A stretch of DNA of 64,000 bases from Jaapia argillacea MUCL 33604. Taxonomy: Eukaryota; Basidiomycota; Agaricomycetes; Jaapiales; Jaapiaceae. Shown here piece by piece: positions 34,388 to 51,054 of the stretch (position 1 is its first letter; each line of letters begins with the position of its first letter). The notes beneath the pieces were generated by a model, which was not told the DNA's origin, made no database searches, and worked only from the letters and a program-made list of their open reading frames with translations. The stretch spans positions 148,969-212,968 of the forward strand of contig KL197735.1 of the NCBI GenBank assembly GCA_000697665.1. The letters run 5' to 3'. A program made the translations under genes and the position numbers.

Positions 34388-36140
34388 ATGTCGGACCACG
34401 TTCCAGGTGGAATCTCATACCAAGGTGATTCTCTGATCAACCTTCAGAGGATCCCACACCAGTTTCTCACTTTATAAGTTTTTCGAATATGAATAACTGT
34501 GCGCTCTTCATCTAGGATGGGAACCCTCCAAACCCAACACCCCCTTGGACCGCATTCCCCCTTCAATCTCCCCGTCGGAATTCCTAAAAACCTATATCCT
34601 ACCTCGCAAACCCTGTATATTTACCTCCCACCTCACAGACCCCTCATTCCACGCCTCTCGCAAATGGACTGATTTCGCCTACCTCGAAGCAGTGGCTGGA
34701 CACGAAAATGTCAAAGTTGAGAGCTTGGACCCAAAGTCGAAGGCTTTTGGTAGTGCGTTGCCCAGGACGGAGATGACGTTTGGCGAGTTTCTGAAAAAGA
34801 TGATGGAAGAGAAGGCGGATGTAGAGGAGATGTATTTGACGACCCAATACGAAGAACAAAACGCGTCCGAAGACTCCTCCACTCTCGAACCACCATTCTT
34901 ATGCTCCCCGCCCTGTAACTCCCTAACGGCCGACCTCCCACTCCGTCCCCGTCTTCTCCACTCCTTGGTCCCCCACCAAATCAACCTCTGGCTTGGCCGT
35001 ACATTCCCTCCCCCAAAACGACCAGAATCCGAAAGTGCAACTAGTAGATCCAGTGGATTACATCATGACCACCACGACAATCTCTACATACTCCTCTCCG
35101 GCCACAAACGATTCATCATATTTCCTCCTTCAGCCCACCCACACCTCCATTTCCACGGCACGGAAGACCTCCAAAACATTCATCCAAACGGCGTGATCTC
35201 CTACGAAGGCATGGGCGACATGGGCGGTGACGCGCTGTGTGAGCGGGATAGGTGGGGATGGGAAGTCAAACGACTGGAACGCAAAGTCCATGAGTTAAAA
35301 AGGGCGAAAAAGGATGTAGTGCAAAAGGCGAGGCTTAAGGGGAAGTGGAAGGGTAGAGCGAAGAATCAAGCTTCTAGGGATCTGCGAATCGCTGAGGACG
35401 AATTAGCAGAAGCTGAGGATCGGCTGTTGGATGCTATTGGGGAGGAAGGAAGTTTGGGAGGCGAAGTGGATGATTTCGACGCCTTGGGTGATCTATTGGA
35501 TGTCGATGATCCTGATTTGGATGACATGGATGCGGGTAGTATCGATGACCATGGATCAATGGTATCTGCCTCTTCAAAAGCATCAACTTCTCGCGATCGT
35601 AAGAAACCCCGTTCGCAAGGCACGGAACCTCCTTCCTTCTCTCGTATCCCAGCCTCTTACCTCCACCATAAACTCGGCCTGCTCCCAAAGTTCCATCCTA
35701 TTCCTACCCTCCCAGAAGACATATCAGAAGGCGACGTCGATATACCGTCTCTTAACCCTATCGTCGTTCATCTTGAACCAGGCGAAATGTTATACCTCCC
35801 AGCAAGCTGGATACACGAAGTCTCGTCTTCCTCGTCCTCTTTCTCATCAAAAACATCCAGTTCCGGTTCATCGTCTTCCGCACCCAAGTCAAAAAGGTCG
35901 AGGGGAACGAAACCGGATGTTCATATGGCGCTCAATTATTGGTTCTATCCTCCTGATCGTCTAACCCCCGAAGATGGTCAGGATGGGGATGAGGATGGAG
36001 GGGTATATCAAATGCAACCGTTATTTGATTTCCTTGGGAAGGAGGTTAAAAGGGTGTGGAAAGAATCTGCTGGGAGTGCCGATGCGCAAGGGGAGGGTGT
36101 GGGGTCGAGTGAGGAGAGCAAGTGTCGGAAGTTCAAGTAA
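34388..36140 (+). CDS. JmjC/cupin-8 domain protein (553 aa)
   Basis: Exon 1 is 34388-34424 and exon 2 is 34516-36140. The joined frame starts MSDHVPGGISYQGWEPSKPN. The N-terminal part has the family's EFLKTYILPRKPCIF motif, in which a protein hydroxylase or demethylase fold receives its substrate. HQINLWLGR and then HHDHHDNLYILLSGHKRFII contain the HxD iron ligands. The distal ligand is the His in MLYLPASWIHEV. Between them is an unusually long acidic and coiled insert (about residues 240-390), and a Ser-rich loop follows the distal His. This predicts a 2-oxoglutarate/Fe(II) oxygenase. The substrate is unknown and could be protein, histone or RNA. Confidence 0.85.
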
Positions 36141-37013
36141 AAATGTACTTTCATTCGCTTCAAGCCAGCACGGTTTCTCGGCAAGTAAGTCGGCGCCTAT
36201 CTCTGCCTGCAAGAGAGGATTGACCCGAGCATAGTGATTACACTTGGACAAGAAAATTCAAGCGATACAAACGGCAGTACTATACTCCAGTGGCGGTAAG
36301 CCCTGTACCATTGGCTACACATTCTTTCTGGCCATCCCTATCGTTCTTGGCTATCTCTCCGTGTGATAGACCGACTCGCCACCATTTCATCCTGATCCCA
36401 ACGTCCGTGCTGTCCATCCACAAAGGATGCTAGTCGTTGTGAAAGCACGTATAAATGATGTTGTGAATGCCGTGACGCCCGCTTCCCTTGGGTATCCTGA
36501 CCTTTCACTGCTCGTACATCACCAGATAGAGTGGTAGGATGGCACGTTGGTCAAACACAACCAGACCGTCATATTCATTAGCAGGCCGACTATGCCTTTT
36601 AGGCTCCGTCGGTTGCCCACTTGATTGGCGGCCATTCCTCGGATAGGGTACGCCAGCCTGCAAGTTGTCGAAGCTGTTGCCAGAGGTTCGGCGCCATGAT
36701 TGGGACCCCGATGCTGCTGACTTATCATGGGAGAATTCACATTCATCACTGTCAGACGCATTGAGTGGCAGGTCCCCTGAAATCAGACGAGAACAATGGC
36801 GAAAATCTTACCCATTATAACAGCCCTTTGGTGTATTATAGAAGGCGCATGGTCGTTTTGGCCTTCGACCCCCGTTGGCCGAATATGTGCGGACGGTCTC
36901 AGACAACCCCCTCGTGGAGCTGCTGATAGCGCGGGGGAAGGTGCCGTGATCACGGGGTGAGGACTGCTCACTTTGCGACGGCGCTCTGAGACGCGGTGTG
37001 ACTTTAGGGCTCT
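36141..37013. other. convergent intergenic region
   Basis: Between the JmjC gene and the kinase/PARP-like gene. No ORF with a recognisable domain. CpG content is normal. Confidence 0.45.
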
Positions 37014-40000
37014 CTACAGCAGACAGTTCTCCGACCTAGAAAATGAATTCATATCAGAGAAAATCAAGTCACCCGAATCCGCCGCACCGAGTCGTATCCT
37101 GGAGGGCTCTGTACAGCTGGCTCGTTTCTGTCAAGTGTGTAAACATTTCCTGCAGTCACTTCACATAATAGCAGGGGCTTCAATAAAATGGGATGAGACT
37201 GTTGTACAAGCCGATCGCAAAATCTTGGTGGAAGTCAGAGCTGGCGCTACCGTAAATGCGATCGGCCTACTTGGAAGCTGTTGAAGATGTATAGAAGCCT
37301 GACCCAAACCTGGAGTCCAAAGGTCATCTTTATTACTTTGGGTACATTCAAGAGGAGAGTACCTTCGCCAACTGGTGATTTCACCACTTGTATAGGCGGA
37401 AGATGTCATCATGCAGCAAATGCCGCACGTATTTGAAGAGCAGATCCCGGTAGGTTGGGATTGTCCGAGTGTACATGCGCATCGAGGACCATACCAACGT
37501 CGATCCTGATTCCCGGAGGTTTGTCCCAGAGAGCGTGAAGAAATGATACCTTGACTGAGAATACAGTGAGCAGATATTACACACAGAGCACTCGCGGCTC
37601 ACCGGAATGACTCATGCATATCTTGAACTTGCGATGAAGAGATGACCCGAAAGACTCTGGCTACAACTGGAGTTTTCGATTCACCTCCCCACGACTCTCC
37701 GAAAGATTCGGCCACTTAAAAGGGCCAGTTCAGTACCGGCAATAGAAATTCAAAGATAAATGCCCTCACCACGTGTAAACATTGGGTGGGTGTTGGGTAC
37801 CTCCAATAGTATTGGAGCGGAGGCAACCGCAGCCCGAGCACATGGATCGGCACAGAAAGGGTCATCTAGAGTATCCCACATCCGACAATTTGTGCGGCAA
37901 AATAAACAAAAGTTGGCGCGAAACCTAGAGGGAACACCGTGAGCCACTAAAAGAAGACGAAATGAAGTCGACCAGCTCACATCTCATAGTGTTTGAAGCA
38001 GACCTCGAACGCTTGTGCGCCATCTCTTATGACGGGTTGCTCACATCCTGATATTCCACACGTCCGATCCCATTCTGCGGCGCACGTGTCGCTACAAAAG
38101 TCGTACTTGATGTCCCCAAAAGAGTATTTCGGGCGAATGTGACAAATCTGTAGGGGAGTTCAGACAATCCGATAGATTAGTACAAAATTAACCCACCACA
38201 CAGAACTCCTGCGCATGAGCTTGGATAGGATTGGAAGATATGGGTGAAAGGTCCATTGTTCCGGGAGGCCAACGCTGCTCGGTGGAATTCTCCGTCGCAG
38301 GAAGTGCCGAAAGGTGTCGAGTAGGAGGGTATGTGAGCAACCCAGAAGTTACTTCTGGTAGCGGGGGGCATTCATTTGTGGGAGTCGTTTCAGTTCTTTT
38401 GCAAATATCCTCCATTGCACGAAGAGCCATGCCCGTGCTTGGCCTCTCTGCAGCGATCTCCGACCAGCAGTTCTCGATAAGGGACCACAAAGCATCAGAT
38501 AGGGTTCGCTCCATACACTGAACAGGCGTTGGGCGTTTAGGCCTGAATCCTTCGTTGAGCTTTAGGATGAGTTGGCCCTCGCTGCAGCTCGGAAATGGCT
38601 GGTTGCGTGTATAAACCTGGAAATCGAATTATTGAATCATCGGAAGCAGATGGGCTGTTTCGAAGGAAATGCTGACCTCCAAATATACACAACCTAAGGC
38701 ATACACGTCACTCGCAAAGGTTCTTTTCAAAGGAAGGTTGAATTTATCTGGGAAATGGAGTTCGGGAGCCATCCACTGAGAGGAACCACCGTGGTTTGTG
38801 CTCGATGCCCCTTTGGTCACGTCAGCAATGGTTGCGAGGCCGAAGTCGGCGAGACGAGGGTGATGGTCATCATCGATGAGAATGTTGCTCTACGAGTGTT
38901 TCGTCAACACAAGTTTTGCAAATGTAGAGGGAGCACATACGCCTCGGAGATCACCATGTATCATGCCTGACTGGTGAAGATAATTCAGTCCCTCCGTAAT
39001 CTCGAGCAGCTGTAATGGTTCCATCGAACTATCGAAATGGATGAGGACCGAAAAGCATACCAGTTCGTCGATGTCAACTTGCATCGAAGCCGACGTTTCC
39101 AGAAACTTCAATATGTCACCATGTCGCATCCATGGCGATACCATACAATACATTGGAACGAAGGAGACAGCATCGATCCCAAGGAAAGGAAGGATATAAC
39201 GATGTTTGAGTGTTTGCCACATCAGTGCTTCCTTGAACAGCATCTGGTTCCGAGTTCTTTCATCAGAATTCTTCTCAGCACGAAACGGAGACCCACTTTT
39301 TGGATGCTCAGCTGGTTCCTTCGGCTATCATGGGAGACTCTCAGACGTTTGAGAGCGACTTCCGTTTCTCCGAGTCCCCCTTGAAAGACGTCCGCGAAAG
39401 AACCCCCTCGAGCAGAGTCCTTGCTCCGTAACTGCACACCAAGCACGCATATAGAGGAGGGAAGCTGTTGACATCGCAACGACAAGTTGATCTGGAGTTT
39501 ATGAACGTCTCGGCGAAATTTCTCGTTGAAGTTGAAGAAAAGATCAGATTTATCTGCGCCGCCGCCGGAGTGGCTGAGGCTCATTCGGTGCAACTTGCTC
39601 CAGTCGTCTAGAATCTATGACCAAGATAATTAGAAAAATTTGCGGGTGGGAGAGTGTAACACGAGCCGTTTGTGCCAATATCATAAATGAATCCGCCTCA
39701 TCGCCCTGCAGTGAGAACACTACCTCCTTTTGCTCGTCCGAGTCGAGAACCCTTCCGAATAAAGATACGATATCAGTTTCGTCCTTGACAATAGCCTCCC
39801 TTTCTTGCATCTTGTCACGGTGCGGGACATCCTTTAAAACCTGGGGATATCTGAGGACTGGGTGGGCCATCTGCATGGTAATGGGCGCTTACGTGATATA
39901 AGGAGTCCCGAAACTTGGTGCTCTGGACTAAACTGTGAACAATGTCAAAGCCTGACATTTGACGCAAGCAATCTCCCAGTGTTGTCCAATGTCTGAACCA

Positions 40001-40621
40001 CTCATGAGACGGGATAAGGATGATGAGGAATGTAGCTTCTCTATACCCGTTCTTAGATAGATCATTATCGGGCAGAGATGTCTTCTGAATGGCTCGGATG
40101 ATCAACGATGACAGATTCTAGAGGAAGGTCCCATGATGATAAGTAACCGAGGACGAAATAGCAATTAGACATACTTACCTTGTAGACTTGAGGCTCTGGC
40201 AAGTCAGACGGCCAGGAGGGAGAAATAAAGGGCATGGCGGTCAAGAGATCTCGGCGGAATCGGGCGAAACGTGTTATATCCAAGCGATCCCTTGGGTGAG
40301 AGAAGAGAACTGGATATAGCCCAAGATCCACCGATGCCGAGCCCTCCGTTCGGTCGATGGACCCGTGGCCAAGGAATGAAACCTTAACGAAAGGCTTCTT
40401 GAGCGCCTAACTTTGGTACTATAATGGGGTCTTCTAGTGAACATATCAGCAGTGCGCTCGAAATAAAACCACTCCTCAAACACAAGATGCTCACCATCGC
40501 CACACAACTTCTCCGTCTCTTGCTGAGACACTGGGGCTATGGTTACGCACCACGCAATGGAGCATGGAAGACGTTGACATTGAGGACCGAGAAGAAGATA
40601 CCACTTTACGGTATCGTGCAT
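37014..40621 (-). CDS. TKL-type kinase joined to Cys clusters and a PARP-like region
   Basis: Read 5' to 3' on the minus strand. Upstream exons (40.6-39.6 kb, start uncertain) are helical. The kinase N-lobe is ARGGSFADVFQGG with VALKRLRV. The catalytic loop IHGDLRG has Gly in place of Arg in HRD, followed by SNILIDDD, ADFGLAT and SSQWMAPELHF. After the kinase, exon QAHAQEFCV joins ICHIRPKYSFGDIKYDFCSD across a 49-nt intron, so a C-x2-C pair spans the junction. More Cys clusters follow (CGISGCEQP, CLFCRTNC), then VAESFGESWGGESKTPVVAR, RRWYGPRCACTLG, ICSSNTCGIC and PPGYDSV. These resemble a fungal PARP-like family that usually has WHGT; here it is WYGP. The frame is continuous to about 37.35 kb and then breaks at least once. 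The kinase is probably active and the PARP-like part probably not. Confidence 0.6.
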
Positions 40622-40994
40622 AGCATGAAGTCACAGAGCCATGAAACGTGAATTTCAGTGAAATTCGGCGGGAATGGGTCTCGGACAAAGTGGCAGTCCA
40701 ACAACCAACTCAACTGATATCGATCAGGTACACGGGTTTGTCATATCGTACACGTCAACAGTTCGAAAGGCAGATACCTCAGTCGACAGTCAGAATGGGG
40801 GGAGTAGACCCAGCATTCCCGGGTGCCTCAGGTTGCACTGGCCCCGCTACAGCTTCTTGGAGGCTAGCCGGAATCTCGATTCTTCCAACTGGAGGTACAA
40901 ACGGTCAGTCGTACACAAGGGCCAAAAGGAGGACACTGACCTCCATCCACGACGTTGATCCCTGGGCGCAGTTCATCCAAGTTGGACATAACTT

Positions 40995-42188
40995 TCAAGG
41001 GATTAGGTGCGTCCTAACCGACGAGTAAGAAACGAGATGGATGAGATACTCTTTGAAAAACAAGACCTCGCTGAACGGGAAAATATCTTGATCGTGCGCT
41101 ATGGCAACTTCGAGGGAAGAATCCTAGGATGAAACATCAAGACAGATCCCAAACAACCGATAATGCAGACTGACACGGAGTACGTATTCTAGGATTGGCG
41201 CGAGTAGGTTGATGCTCTGGGGAAAGTGTCGTAAGGCGATCGCAGGAGATCAGTGCTCCACTTACTTTGCAATCATCAGGAATCATCTCTATTATAACAT
41301 CCTCGTCTCCGTATTCCTCAGGGAGAGATCGATCCATCATGCGGAATCCCCTGATAAAAAGACACTGGTTGTATACGGGTTCGATCGGCAATTCACCGGG
41401 AACTGGTGGCGAGATACGATACGGTCCACGGCGGCGATCGACAGAAGGGGTCCATGTCGTACTCGAGGTGATCACCGCTGTGCTGTTCTCATACCCAGTC
41501 ATGTCAACCGTCCCATGAGACTCTTGATCCTCGCGAATGCTGGAGGAGGTTGTCACTTCCCATTCGACGGATTTATCGCACCCTGTCACAAAATAGAAGT
41601 CGGAGAGGTCGATGCCGAAACCGTTATCCTCGTTCGCCCATTCGAGCCATGACTTGTAGTGCTGAATCATGTACTGCTGGAATAGAGGGAGGAGGTTGGT
41701 GTCCTCTTGCAATACCTGGTTGGAAGTCGTCACTGAAGCAGTCTGTTGTCGAGTGACCGAGGTGGCGAGCTCATCAGGTCTTGGATGTGAGATCAGTAAA
41801 GAGGTGATGCCCTTCAAAAGCGGTCAACTCACCTAATGTAAGAGTAAGATCCCGATGACTTTAGAACCCCTGGACCCAGGGAGGATTTGCTTGAAGTGAC
41901 AAAGTCCAGGACTTGTTGTGGTGTAAGGCCATCCGTTCCAGGAACCTCCAACTGCCGAAAGTCTGGGGGAGTGCCCCATCTCTGCGATGCGTGATCGGAG
42001 GGAAGCAACACGTTGAAAAGAGTATGAAATCCTCCATATCTCAAATATCCAACATCACCAATCCGAACTGGGGGAGAAAGCGCGTCACCACCTGAGACTC
42101 GAGGAACATCTGGCTGCCAGAGCGCGTGCCCGTGGCGAAGGGTGGAGAGTTGGGAAGCATAAGTTTCTGAACTCGCAGTAGGATCCAT
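40995..42188 (-). CDS. Agaricomycete orphan protein, multi-copy family
   Basis: The start codon at 42188 opens MDPTASSETYASQLSTLRHG. Exon 1 ends at 41833, and after an intron of about 57 nt the next exon reads PDELATSVTRQQ. It contains LPLFQQYMIQHYKSWLEWAN, FGIDLSDFYFVTGCDKSVEW and YNQCLFIRGFRMMDR. Later exons give INLLAPILEYVLR and DSSLEVAIAHDQDIFPFSE. This layout (a GDVGYLRYGGF start, an SWLEWAN helix, an NQCLFIRGF strand) matches a mushroom protein family that I know only as hypothetical proteins. No catalytic motif is visible. It sits upstream of the kinase/PARP-like gene on the same strand. Confidence 0.65.
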
Positions 42189-47987: not shown

Positions 47988-50900
47988 ATGAGCGGTTCAT
48001 CTTCGCAACACGGGACACCCTCGATAGGCCCATACCCTATTGCCGAGCCTGTGTCGGTGTCATCCCTCGACAACTCGGTGTCTGCAAACACTTTGAAAGA
48101 TGACCTAGAGTGTGTCGCCTCTCTGCAAGATTATGCAGATTTCATCCCCTATCGATTATTGTTTCTGTGGGAGGTGGTGGAAGGTCTTCATACTGGACTC
48201 GATATTCGACGCAGAACAGAACTTTGGTTATCCTTAATTGAAGGGGGTGAAGAAGACGATGTCTGGCTGTGGGTAGATGGGGACGAGGCGTGGGCACAGC
48301 AGAATTATCAGCCTGAATCTTCCGCTCTACAAGGCCTGACGCCTCGCGCTTTGCAAGATGCTTTAACTGCCTTGCAGAGGCGTCTCACCCGTGGGTCACC
48401 TGTGGGTCAAGACACTTCCTCGGAGGCCTTGTCGTACGTTCAACGGGTGCGTTCTGTCGGTAACCCTAGCAGCCGCTTTTTGGCTATCGCGTGGCTCGTT
48501 TCCACATCACGGGATTCTAGCAATCTCAGCCTTTCGCAAGGATATGGACCTGCTCGAACTTTCAATCTTGTATTTCTTGTTACTGTTTGGGTTCGCAGAA
48601 CTCGGGGACTCCCTGATGGGCTTCCTTCTTCATCGCACGATGTCTACGATTCGTTCGACAGGACCATCAGGGATTCAGGCCATCCATGCTACACGTTAAT
48701 GCTTCGGAACGTTGCCTCGGAAGACTGCAGGCTGTGGCTACGCTTCTTGCTTTGGCTTTACGACAAGTCAGAGTTGGGAATTATATGCTTCTACCAAGCC
48801 GAATGTCCTGCTCGGTGAGAGAAACCATCCCCACGAATTAACTCAGTTGACTCTTGTGGCAGATTCCTACCAGCGACGTCTTGGCTTTTCTACCCAGAAG
48901 ATCGCCGGCAACAACCACTTGTACTCATAAAGTCCCAGAGACCAAAGGATAATCTAGGAATGGAGCATCCCAAACTCCTTCACGCAATCGTATGGCTAAC
49001 TGCGACTCGTCATGGATCGGTCGCCCTGTCTGATCAGAAATTAGAGGAAATCCATGCCTCGATTGCTAGGCTGTCGAGGCAGATGTGGGATAAGTCTGAA
49101 GCGGAGTTGAGTGAAAGGGTACAGGCCGGCAAGCCCAATCTTATCTTTCTCGCATGGATGAACGTATATCCACGAGAGTGGCGATTGCAATTGGGCGGCG
49201 GCCTCACGTCCTTGAACTGGCGGCAGTTTGAGGAGGTTCGAGTGGCAGCTGCCAACAATCCCCCTCATTATCCTCCCACAAATAGCATCATGGCTTTAGG
49301 TGCTATTTTGTGGCTTACCGTTCGGGCCGTTCAAAACGTGGGGAACTCAAAGTCTACTCTGAAAGATATTCAATCCGCATGGTTCGCGTGGTTTTCCGCC
49401 GTCCATCGATATATTCAGCCATTTACCAACCTCCCAGACGTTCCAGAAAGTCCCTCCATCCTTCGCTTCCATGCTCAGTTGGCACGATCCTCCCACACGT
49501 GTTACCTACAGTTGAGTAGGTTCGAGCAAAGTTTATATGCCGCCGTGACGTCTTTCCTCGAGAAAGGCCAAGATATCATATTTGTCGGAGTGGGCGACCA
49601 GATTTCGTGGGGAGATCAGGAAGCTATTCGTGGTGAGGGTTGCGAAGAATGCAAGATGATGCGGTCGCGACTGAGGGACCCTTTATCCTCTATCACCGGA
49701 GTGCCAATGCCAATCTCATCAGTGACCAGTCTCGGTGTCGTGGCCTCTTCGATCTCTCCAACTCCTCGTCCCCCTCTCGATGTCAGCCCCAAGCCACCAG
49801 CGGTAAGACATCTTATTCGTCATTGTCCTATTTATCAATGACTTTCGATGATTGAATCCTCCTGTTCCTCAATTCATCGGCATCACCTCGCAGGAGCCGG
49901 AGATACTTCCCTCCGCTCCGTCACACAACGATCAACTTCATGATTTGACCGATTGTGTAAAAATATTCCCTGGTCCATTGTGTGGTGGGTCGACTTGCGA
50001 TATTTAACATCGGCCAACTGGAGTGGAAGGGACGTGCAACGAAGACCGCGCTGAAACAGCTGAGGGTATTCATGAACTGGTCAGTCACAGAACGAGAGAA
50101 AGCAATGAATGTACGTGGGTTCCCCTGCCTCAACGTCTCATGTGTACAACCCCTTTGGTGCGCTAGTCATTTCGTAGGGAGATGAATATTTGGTCTCGGT
50201 TCAACCATCCCAACATTCTGCCCTTCTACGGCTTCGTCCTAATCGAGCAATCACGGCTCTTCTTGGTGTCTCCTTGGTGCAACAACGGCAACTCCATGGA
50301 ATTTCTCGGACGAAATCCGCATTTCAGTCGACACAAGCTAGTGAGTCCAATTTCGAGCAGAATCTGGAGGTATGCAGCATGGCGTTTTCAACTGTCGCCA
50401 GATTTCTCAGGTAGCAGATGCTCTTGACTACCTGCATTCCGGCCGATCAGGAAAGTCCTACATCCACGGCGATATTAAAGGGGTGAATGGTTTTCTCCAT
50501 GCAGAAGGCATGCAATCGCCGTTGACTTCTTGCATAGGATAATGTCCTCATTTCGGATGACGGCAAGGCCTTGCTGACTGATTTTGGGCTCACGAGGCAC
50601 GTCGAGCAAGTAACCACCGTAGTAACTGCCACACCCTCCCGTATGTCTGCACTTGGACATGTTCGCTTTTCCGCTCCGGAACTTTTCAGAAGTCAGCGAC
50701 CCACAACCCCGAGCGACTGCTTTGCGTTCGGTTGCTTGGTTATCCAGGTTCGTGACAAACTTGATCCTCAGCGGACTACTTTCCGACATCGACCATCTCC
50801 AGGTATACACCGGACATCTGCCATATGATCACCTTGATACCGATCCACTAGTCCTTGGAGCTGTACTCGCGGGCGAGAAGCCTCATCGTCCGACAAGCTC

Positions 50901-51054
50901 GAACGTTATTGCTGCCGGGTTGGATGACGAGTTGTGGCAGTTGGTGGACGAATGTCTTGACAATCAGGCAGCTATGAGGCCGGATATGAGCGAGATACTT
51001 TCCAGATTGAAACAACACCCACGTTTTCAACCGTTTTCCGTCCGTGAGTACTAA
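47988..51054 (+). CDS. TKL-type protein kinase with helical N-terminus, one frame break
   Basis: Exons are 47988-48814, 48863-49802, 49894-50110, 50182 to about 50339, then three more to a stop at 51054. The first 590 residues are helical and Trp-rich with no known domain. The kinase begins KIFPGPLCGGSTCDI, with TKTALKQLRVF holding the lysine. Later come NHPNILPFYGFVL, YIHGDIKG (Gly for Arg in HRD), DNVLISDDGKALLTDFGLTR, FSAPELF and a C-lobe ending RLKQHPRFQPF. In exon 3 the frame stops at 50005 because of one extra base in GATATTTAACATCGGC, inside the Gly-rich loop. Everything after is intact in the shifted frame. It is either an assembly error or a very recent loss. The role is probably in signalling; the substrates are unknown. 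Confidence 0.7.

What the first reader, a model, noticed from the sequence alone, without database searches (positions are those of the whole stretch)
37014..40621. Kinase, Cys clusters and a PARP-like region in one gene
Seen: a complete TKL-like kinase (VALKRLRV, IHGDLRG, ADFGLAT) is followed in phase, through four canonical short introns, by Cys clusters and a region with RRWYGPRCACTLG, ICSSNTCGIC and PPGYDSV. The C-x2-C motif FCV/ICH is created only when the 49-nt intron at 38.15-38.2 kb is removed, which argues for one protein rather than two neighbours. From memory, the second half resembles a mushroom PARP-like family with Cys clusters and WHGT. Here WYGP replaces WHGT, so the triad His is missing, and the last 300 bases show frame trouble. 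Inference: a signalling kinase that gained an ADP-ribosyl-binding or dead transferase module, possibly in stress or self/non-self responses.
Basis: partly seen in the sequence, partly recalled or inferred. Interest (0 to 1): 0.75.

Follow-up and report, generated by a model that had tools for sequence, protein, structure and literature searches.

The report
Mushroom kinase fused to dead PARP
A fungal gene joins a working-looking signalling kinase to a PARP-like module that has lost catalytic residues and gained a zinc finger, and a second copy in the same genome indicates that the join is real and kept by selection.

Summary
The gene lies on the minus strand, 40235-36505 (model of 16 exons, 975 aa), past the stated end; the 'frame trouble' is introns. 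Order: N-terminal region, TKL/RIPK-like kinase with its catalytic residues, linker, Cys clusters, PARP domain with a CCCH zinc finger inserted before its last strands. A second copy on another contig (594 of 962 aligned residues identical) has the same order and a counterpart for each of the 15 introns, including the 49-nt intron that makes the C-x2-C at the kinase-Cys junction. Segments tested with intervals show constraint. Nine other relatives of the PARP half found in this genome read H-Y-E, with no kinase hit in their loci and no insert; the two kinase-fused copies read Y-Y-G and Y-S-S. Best reading: an active kinase steered by a pseudo-PARP/zinc-finger binding module. The nearest functional analogue is human PARP13/ZAP (CCCH fingers, Y-Y-V, inactive), which has no kinase. 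No other fungal genome could be searched, there were no transcripts and no structure model, and the paper searches made showed no kinase-PARP fusion. Rated a new variant of a known kind.

The parts
36505..40235 (-). whole gene W, model of 16 exons, 975 aa (start codon at 40235, stop codon ends at 36505)
   Evidence: gene model; homology to second copy
39396..40235 (-). N-terminal region, residues 1-225, no Pfam family for residues 1-219; residues 117-153 have a match before the kinase of C91
38386..39395 (-). TKL/RIPK-like kinase domain, residues 226-490 (G-loop begins at 222); Lys241, Asp339 of HGD, DFG, APE present
   Evidence: PF07714 5.5e-36; best solved chain RIPK1 2.2e-24; numbering
38203..38385 (-). 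Pro/Ser/Thr-rich linker, residues 491-551
   Evidence: pN/pS 0.62, interval 0.46-0.85
38148..38196 (-). intron 8, 49 nt; its removal creates C-x2-C (CVIC) and joins kinase to Cys clusters; same position and phase in second copy
37701..38202 (-). Cys clusters, residues 552-665
   Evidence: 32 of 106 identical, 1e-13, to the Cys region of an H-Y-E relative on C30
37088..37508 (-). PARP domain, first part, residues 714-820: WYGP (Tyr719 in place of His), inner Cys, GFYT (Tyr768), PPGYDS
37224..37270 (-). intron 13, explains the in-frame TAG read as frame trouble
37036..37087 (-). intron 14
36580..37035 (-). insert in the PARP domain, residues 821-951, with intron 15 (36811-36749)
   Evidence: 508 nt (W) and 836 nt (second copy) between the GYDS/GYNSV and NEYD motifs, against 70-106 nt in 9 of 9 other relatives
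36727..36849 (-). CCCH zinc finger C-x8-C-x5-C-x3-H, residues 883-902, split by intron 15
   Evidence: zf-CCCH_9 1.2e-4 and zf-CCCH_4 5.9e-4, below curated cut-offs; two fingers in second copy, PF00642 26.6 bits against 20.5
36508..36579 (-). last PARP part NEYDGLVVF...YLVMYEQ, residues 952-975; Gly956 at the place of the catalytic Glu
39615..39666 (-). intron 3 with GC donor (GT in second copy)

Best explanation
One protein: a catalytically competent tyrosine-kinase-like kinase whose C-terminal half is a recognition module built from a Cys (probably zinc-binding) region, a PARP fold that can no longer transfer ADP-ribose (pseudo-PARP), and one or two CCCH fingers inserted into it. Proposed working: the pseudo-PARP/CCCH half binds a ligand (most likely a protein surface or RNA; an ADP-ribosylated partner is possible), which places or pairs the kinase and starts phosphorylation. 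Shown from sequence: conserved order in two copies, kinase motifs, PARP homology, loss of His and Glu, finger insertion, constraint on the parts tested. Inferred: kinase activity, absence of transferase activity, zinc binding, the ligand, and the switch by proximity.
For: Same order and a counterpart for 15 of 15 introns in a second copy, with C-x2-C across the junction in both. pN/pS kinase 0.30, Cys 0.26, PARP 0.47, CCCH to C-term 0.31, upper interval limits below 1. Kinase PF07714 5.5e-36 and 9e-38 in the two copies; RIPK1 is the best solved match, with LCK and B-Raf close behind. PARP: PF00644 matches 8 of 8 members of A1 at E up to 10, best 4.9e-14, W 1.3e-06; profile to PARP4 7.1e-11 with the Glu column aligned to PARP4 DDEFVVY. 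Triad: 9 of 9 relatives without a kinase hit H-Y-E, 2 of 2 kinase-fused Y-Y-G and Y-S-S; the two are split from the other nine with support 100 on a branch of 1.24 substitutions per site. The four inner Cys are kept in 11 of 11, so structure seems held while catalytic residues are lost. Inactive PARPs kept for other uses are known: PARP13 Y-Y-V and PARP9 Q-Y-T (PMC9189837, passages), TASOR (PMC7532188, passages).
Against: No transcripts. Splice sites were chosen by eye, and those of the second copy with W in view, so the intron agreement is not fully independent. Intron 3 has a GC donor; if unused, translation is disturbed before the kinase (an in-phase GT donor exists upstream at 39723). PF00644 is only just over its cut-off for W and is not reported for the full second copy at E up to 1. 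The CCCH finger of W is below curated cut-offs. The His column is placed by the motif RRW[HY]G, not by the solved-structure alignment, which starts after it. Constraint is weaker in the PARP part, and in one short stretch (residues 698-716, 19 codons) omega is 0.76; YN00 failed in four of the twelve stretches. No structure model was made.
Confidence: 0.62

Rival explanations
1. Two neighbouring genes, a kinase and a PARP-like gene, or a kinase-only isoform through retention of intron 8.
For: In W, retention of intron 8 gives a stop two codons after FCV (FCV-VG*), so a kinase-only product is possible.
Against: Same order and same junction intron in a second copy at 62% identity; the retained-intron stop is not shared, the second copy would read on for about 55 codons; the first Cys pair would be cut in two; the linker is constrained too, if less.
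Confidence: 0.08
2. A decaying gene: the PARP half has lost catalytic residues because it is on the way to being a pseudogene.
For: Loss of His and Glu; GC donor at intron 3; Pfam does not report PARP in the full second copy; PARP part evolves faster than the kinase.
Against: Open frames through 16 and 17 modelled exons in two old copies (dS about 1.1); pN/pS of the PARP part 0.47 with interval 0.36-0.61; 21 of the last 23 aligned residues identical.
Confidence: 0.1
3. The PARP half still binds or turns over NAD with a rearranged active site, or acts as a mono-ADP-ribosyltransferase.
For: Tyr768 is kept in W; mono-ARTs of H-Y-Phi type work without the Glu (PMC9189837, passages).
Against: The His, described there as essential for NAD binding, is Tyr in both copies, and the second copy has also lost the Tyr.
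Confidence: 0.12

Closest known systems
Human PARP13 / ZAP (ZC3HAV1)
   Same: CCCH zinc fingers with a PARP domain whose triad is Y-Y-V and which is inactive (PMC9189837 and PMC8568172, passages); the window gene reads Y-Y-G
   Different: no kinase in the ZAP domain plan seen; four N-terminal fingers, a fifth and WWE there, one or two fingers inside the PARP domain here; the shared Tyr is taken as convergence, since nine fungal relatives are H-Y-E
TASOR pseudo-PARP of the HUSH complex
   Same: degenerate PARP domain needed for function without catalysis, reported to bind weakly to ssRNA (PMC7532188, passages)
   Different: no kinase or CCCH finger in the passages seen
WHGT-type PARP-like genes of the same genome (C30 array, C16, C8)
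   Same: similar Cys region (one compared) and PARP core
   Different: H-Y-E kept (9 of 9), no kinase hit in loci L042, L043, L044, L047, L048, no long insert
RIPK1-like / TKL kinases
   Same: kinase domain, best solved match RIPK1; TKL expansion reported for Laccaria bicolor (PMC2838846, passages)
   Different: the word PARP does not occur in the main text of that kinome paper
Fungal Clade 6A PARP-UBCc proteins
   Same: fungal PARP with a second signalling domain (PMC2964712, passages)
   Different: partner is a ubiquitin-conjugating domain, not a kinase

Membership tests
TKL protein kinases | kinase domain with Lys, HxD Asp, DFG, APE | tested here: met
   PF07714 5.5e-36, residues
TKL protein kinases | closest to TKL rather than other groups | tested here: inconclusive
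   RIPK1 first (2.2e-24), but tyrosine kinase LCK close (1.4e-23); no kinase tree made
PARP catalytic-domain family (PF00644) | profile match over curated cut-off | tested here: met
   27.3 bits against 26.7 for W; not reported for the full second copy
Active PARP / mono-ART | His and Tyr of the triad, Glu for polymer | tested here: not met
   Y-Y-G in W, Y-S-S in second copy, against H-Y-E in 9 of 9 relatives
PARP13/ZAP family | CCCH finger plus PARP domain without the triad His and Glu | tested here: met
   finger of W below Pfam cut-offs, those of second copy above
PARP13/ZAP family | N-terminal multi-finger RNA-binding domain and WWE | tested here: not met
   no WWE among the 13 families listed up to E 10; finger lies inside the PARP domain
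Pseudo-PARP | no NAD binding or transfer in assay | not testable with these tools
   needs protein
WHGT-type fungal PARP-like family | Cys region followed by RRWHGT ... GxYT ... YDELVVY core | tested here: inconclusive

The most novel reading that the evidence does not exclude
A single-chain sensor kinase that detects foreign or aberrant RNA with a ZAP-like pseudo-PARP/CCCH module and answers by phosphorylation: a fungal counterpart that combines in one protein what ZAP and PKR (recalled) do in animals with separate proteins.
Probability: 0.15. Interest if true: 0.85.

Novelty: new variant of a known kind. Interest (0 to 1): 0.6.

Why it matters
It ties two signalling folds together in one chain and shows, inside one genome, loss of catalytic residues in the PARP half that goes with the presence of a kinase and of zinc fingers, while nine relatives keep the triad. 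That is a clear natural case of an enzyme domain apparently turned into a binding domain, and a testable candidate for RNA or protein sensing by a kinase in a fungus whose genome holds many similar kinases and whose kinase inputs are, as far as I recall, mostly unknown.

Tried and rejected
Rejected: frameshift or pseudogene for 37.0-37.3 kb (introns with counterparts in the second copy). Rejected: assembly artefact (same order on contigs C27 and C56 at 62% identity). Rejected: a 5' end at 40621 (homology stops at 40253).

Led nowhere: relatives in IMG/VR (13 stretches matched a pattern, none confirmed) and in prokaryote genomes (62 stretches, none confirmed). Paper searches for kinase-PARP fusions: 0 papers for five phrases; nothing to the point among the 20 listed of 758, 3 of 3, 15 of 20, 20 of 46.

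Limits of counts: the kinase search scored 106 of 508 candidates, so it cannot exclude fusions with other kinases elsewhere. The PARP search gave 27 matches, which I grouped by eye into 11 loci. The loci of the nine other relatives reach about 2.9 kb or more upstream of the PARP part; they were checked for a kinase by tblastn with the W kinase at E 1e-2. Branch-site motif CTRAY was found in 7 of 15 W introns, so it supports some of them only. The tree's placement of the kinase-fused pair among the nine is weakly supported.

Full report
What is there. The window is C27:148969-212968 of a 43.7-Mb genome held without a name. On the minus strand, 40235-36505, my model of 16 exons (W) gives 975 residues. 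Residues 226-490 are a kinase (PF07714 5.5e-36; best solved match RIPK1 2.2e-24, then LCK 1.4e-23) with Lys241, Asp339 of HGD, DFG and APE. Residues 552-665 hold Cys clusters, 714-820 and 952-975 the PARP core, and 821-951 an insert with a CCCH finger.

One protein. The second copy (P, L041 5393-1335 minus, C56) has the same parts in the same order; 594 of 962 aligned residues are identical. Each of the 15 introns of W has a counterpart of the same phase in P, 14 at the same alignment column and intron 4 one column off beside a one-residue gap; P has one more, from a doubled finger exon. I placed the splice sites by eye and those of P with W in view. Intron 8 (38196-38148 in W) makes C-V-I-C in W and C-V-V-C in P. 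Blastn homology spans 40253-37140 and 36896-36473, from 18 bases before the W start codon to 32 bases after the stop, with the diverged insert in between. In W a retained intron 8 gives a stop two codons on; in P reading would go on for about 55 codons.

Selection. pN/pS with intervals from 2000 codon resamplings: all 0.37 (0.33-0.41), N-terminal 0.36 (0.28-0.47), kinase 0.30 (0.23-0.39), linker 0.62 (0.46-0.85), Cys 0.26 (0.18-0.37), PARP 666-820 0.47 (0.36-0.61), insert 821-880 0.48 (0.33-0.68), CCCH to C-term 0.31 (0.20-0.47), residues 714-820 0.43 (0.32-0.58). So each of these stretches is constrained, the PARP part less than the kinase. A 19-codon stretch, 698-716, has omega 0.76 without an interval, and YN00 failed in four of twelve stretches.

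The PARP half and its triad. A search of this genome with an H-Y-E member gives 27 matches that I group into 11 loci: six on C30, two on C16, one on C8, and W and P. The nine others read H-Y-E; W reads Y-Y-G, P reads Y-S-S; the motif exons of all 11 were found in order in the DNA. The Glu column is tied to PARP4 by a profile alignment; the His column rests on the motif with HG that the nine share. W and P are split from the rest with support 100 on a branch of 1.24 substitutions per site. The shared Tyr suggests that the His was lost before the duplication; Glu is replaced by different residues (Gly, Ser), so its loss may be shared or separate. No kinase was found by tblastn in the five loci that hold the nine others. 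The four inner Cys are kept in 11 of 11.

The zinc finger. W has one C-x8-C-x5-C-x3-H, P two; those of P pass Pfam cut-offs (PF00642 26.6 against 20.5; PF22623 27.3 against 27), that of W does not. They sit between the GYDSV motif and the strand that carries the catalytic Glu in relatives: 508 and 836 nt in W and P, 70-106 nt, introns included, in the nine others. From general knowledge of PARP structure (recalled), this is the ARTT-loop side of the active site.

Meaning. Inactive PARP domains kept for other uses are established: PARP13 (Y-Y-V), PARP9 (Q-Y-T), TASOR (passages seen). In ZAP, changing the residues at the triad places lowers antiviral activity (PMC8568172, passages), so such a domain can matter without catalysis. 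The likeness to ZAP (CCCH plus Tyr in place of His) is of possible working, not of descent. What the fungal module binds is not known; RNA is suggested by the fingers only.

Against. No transcript data; GC donor at intron 3, though an in-phase GT donor lies upstream at 39723; the PARP match of W is marginal on its own and that of the full P is not reported; nothing from other fungi could be searched here; the literature searches cover open-licence full text only and I saw the top of the longer lists.

Noticed in passing
34497-36140 (+): Cupin_8/JmjC-like open frame (PF13621 1.8e-36), tail to tail with the kinase gene.
   Followed up: partly
50541-51021 (+): A second, distant kinase-like stretch in the window (tblastn 4e-7 and 4e-5).
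   Followed up: no
40779-41823 (-): Coding-looking open frames upstream of the gene; no Pfam match for the one joined stretch tried.
   Followed up: no
L043, L044, L047 (G000:C30:410-428 kb): Array of six PARP-like genes with H-Y-E, all on one strand, in different degrees of divergence.
   Followed up: partly
G000, whole genome: 136 matches (exon by exon, so not genes) to the kinase domain at E 1e-3, a lower bound, several in clusters on C27, C33, C39, C17.
   Followed up: no
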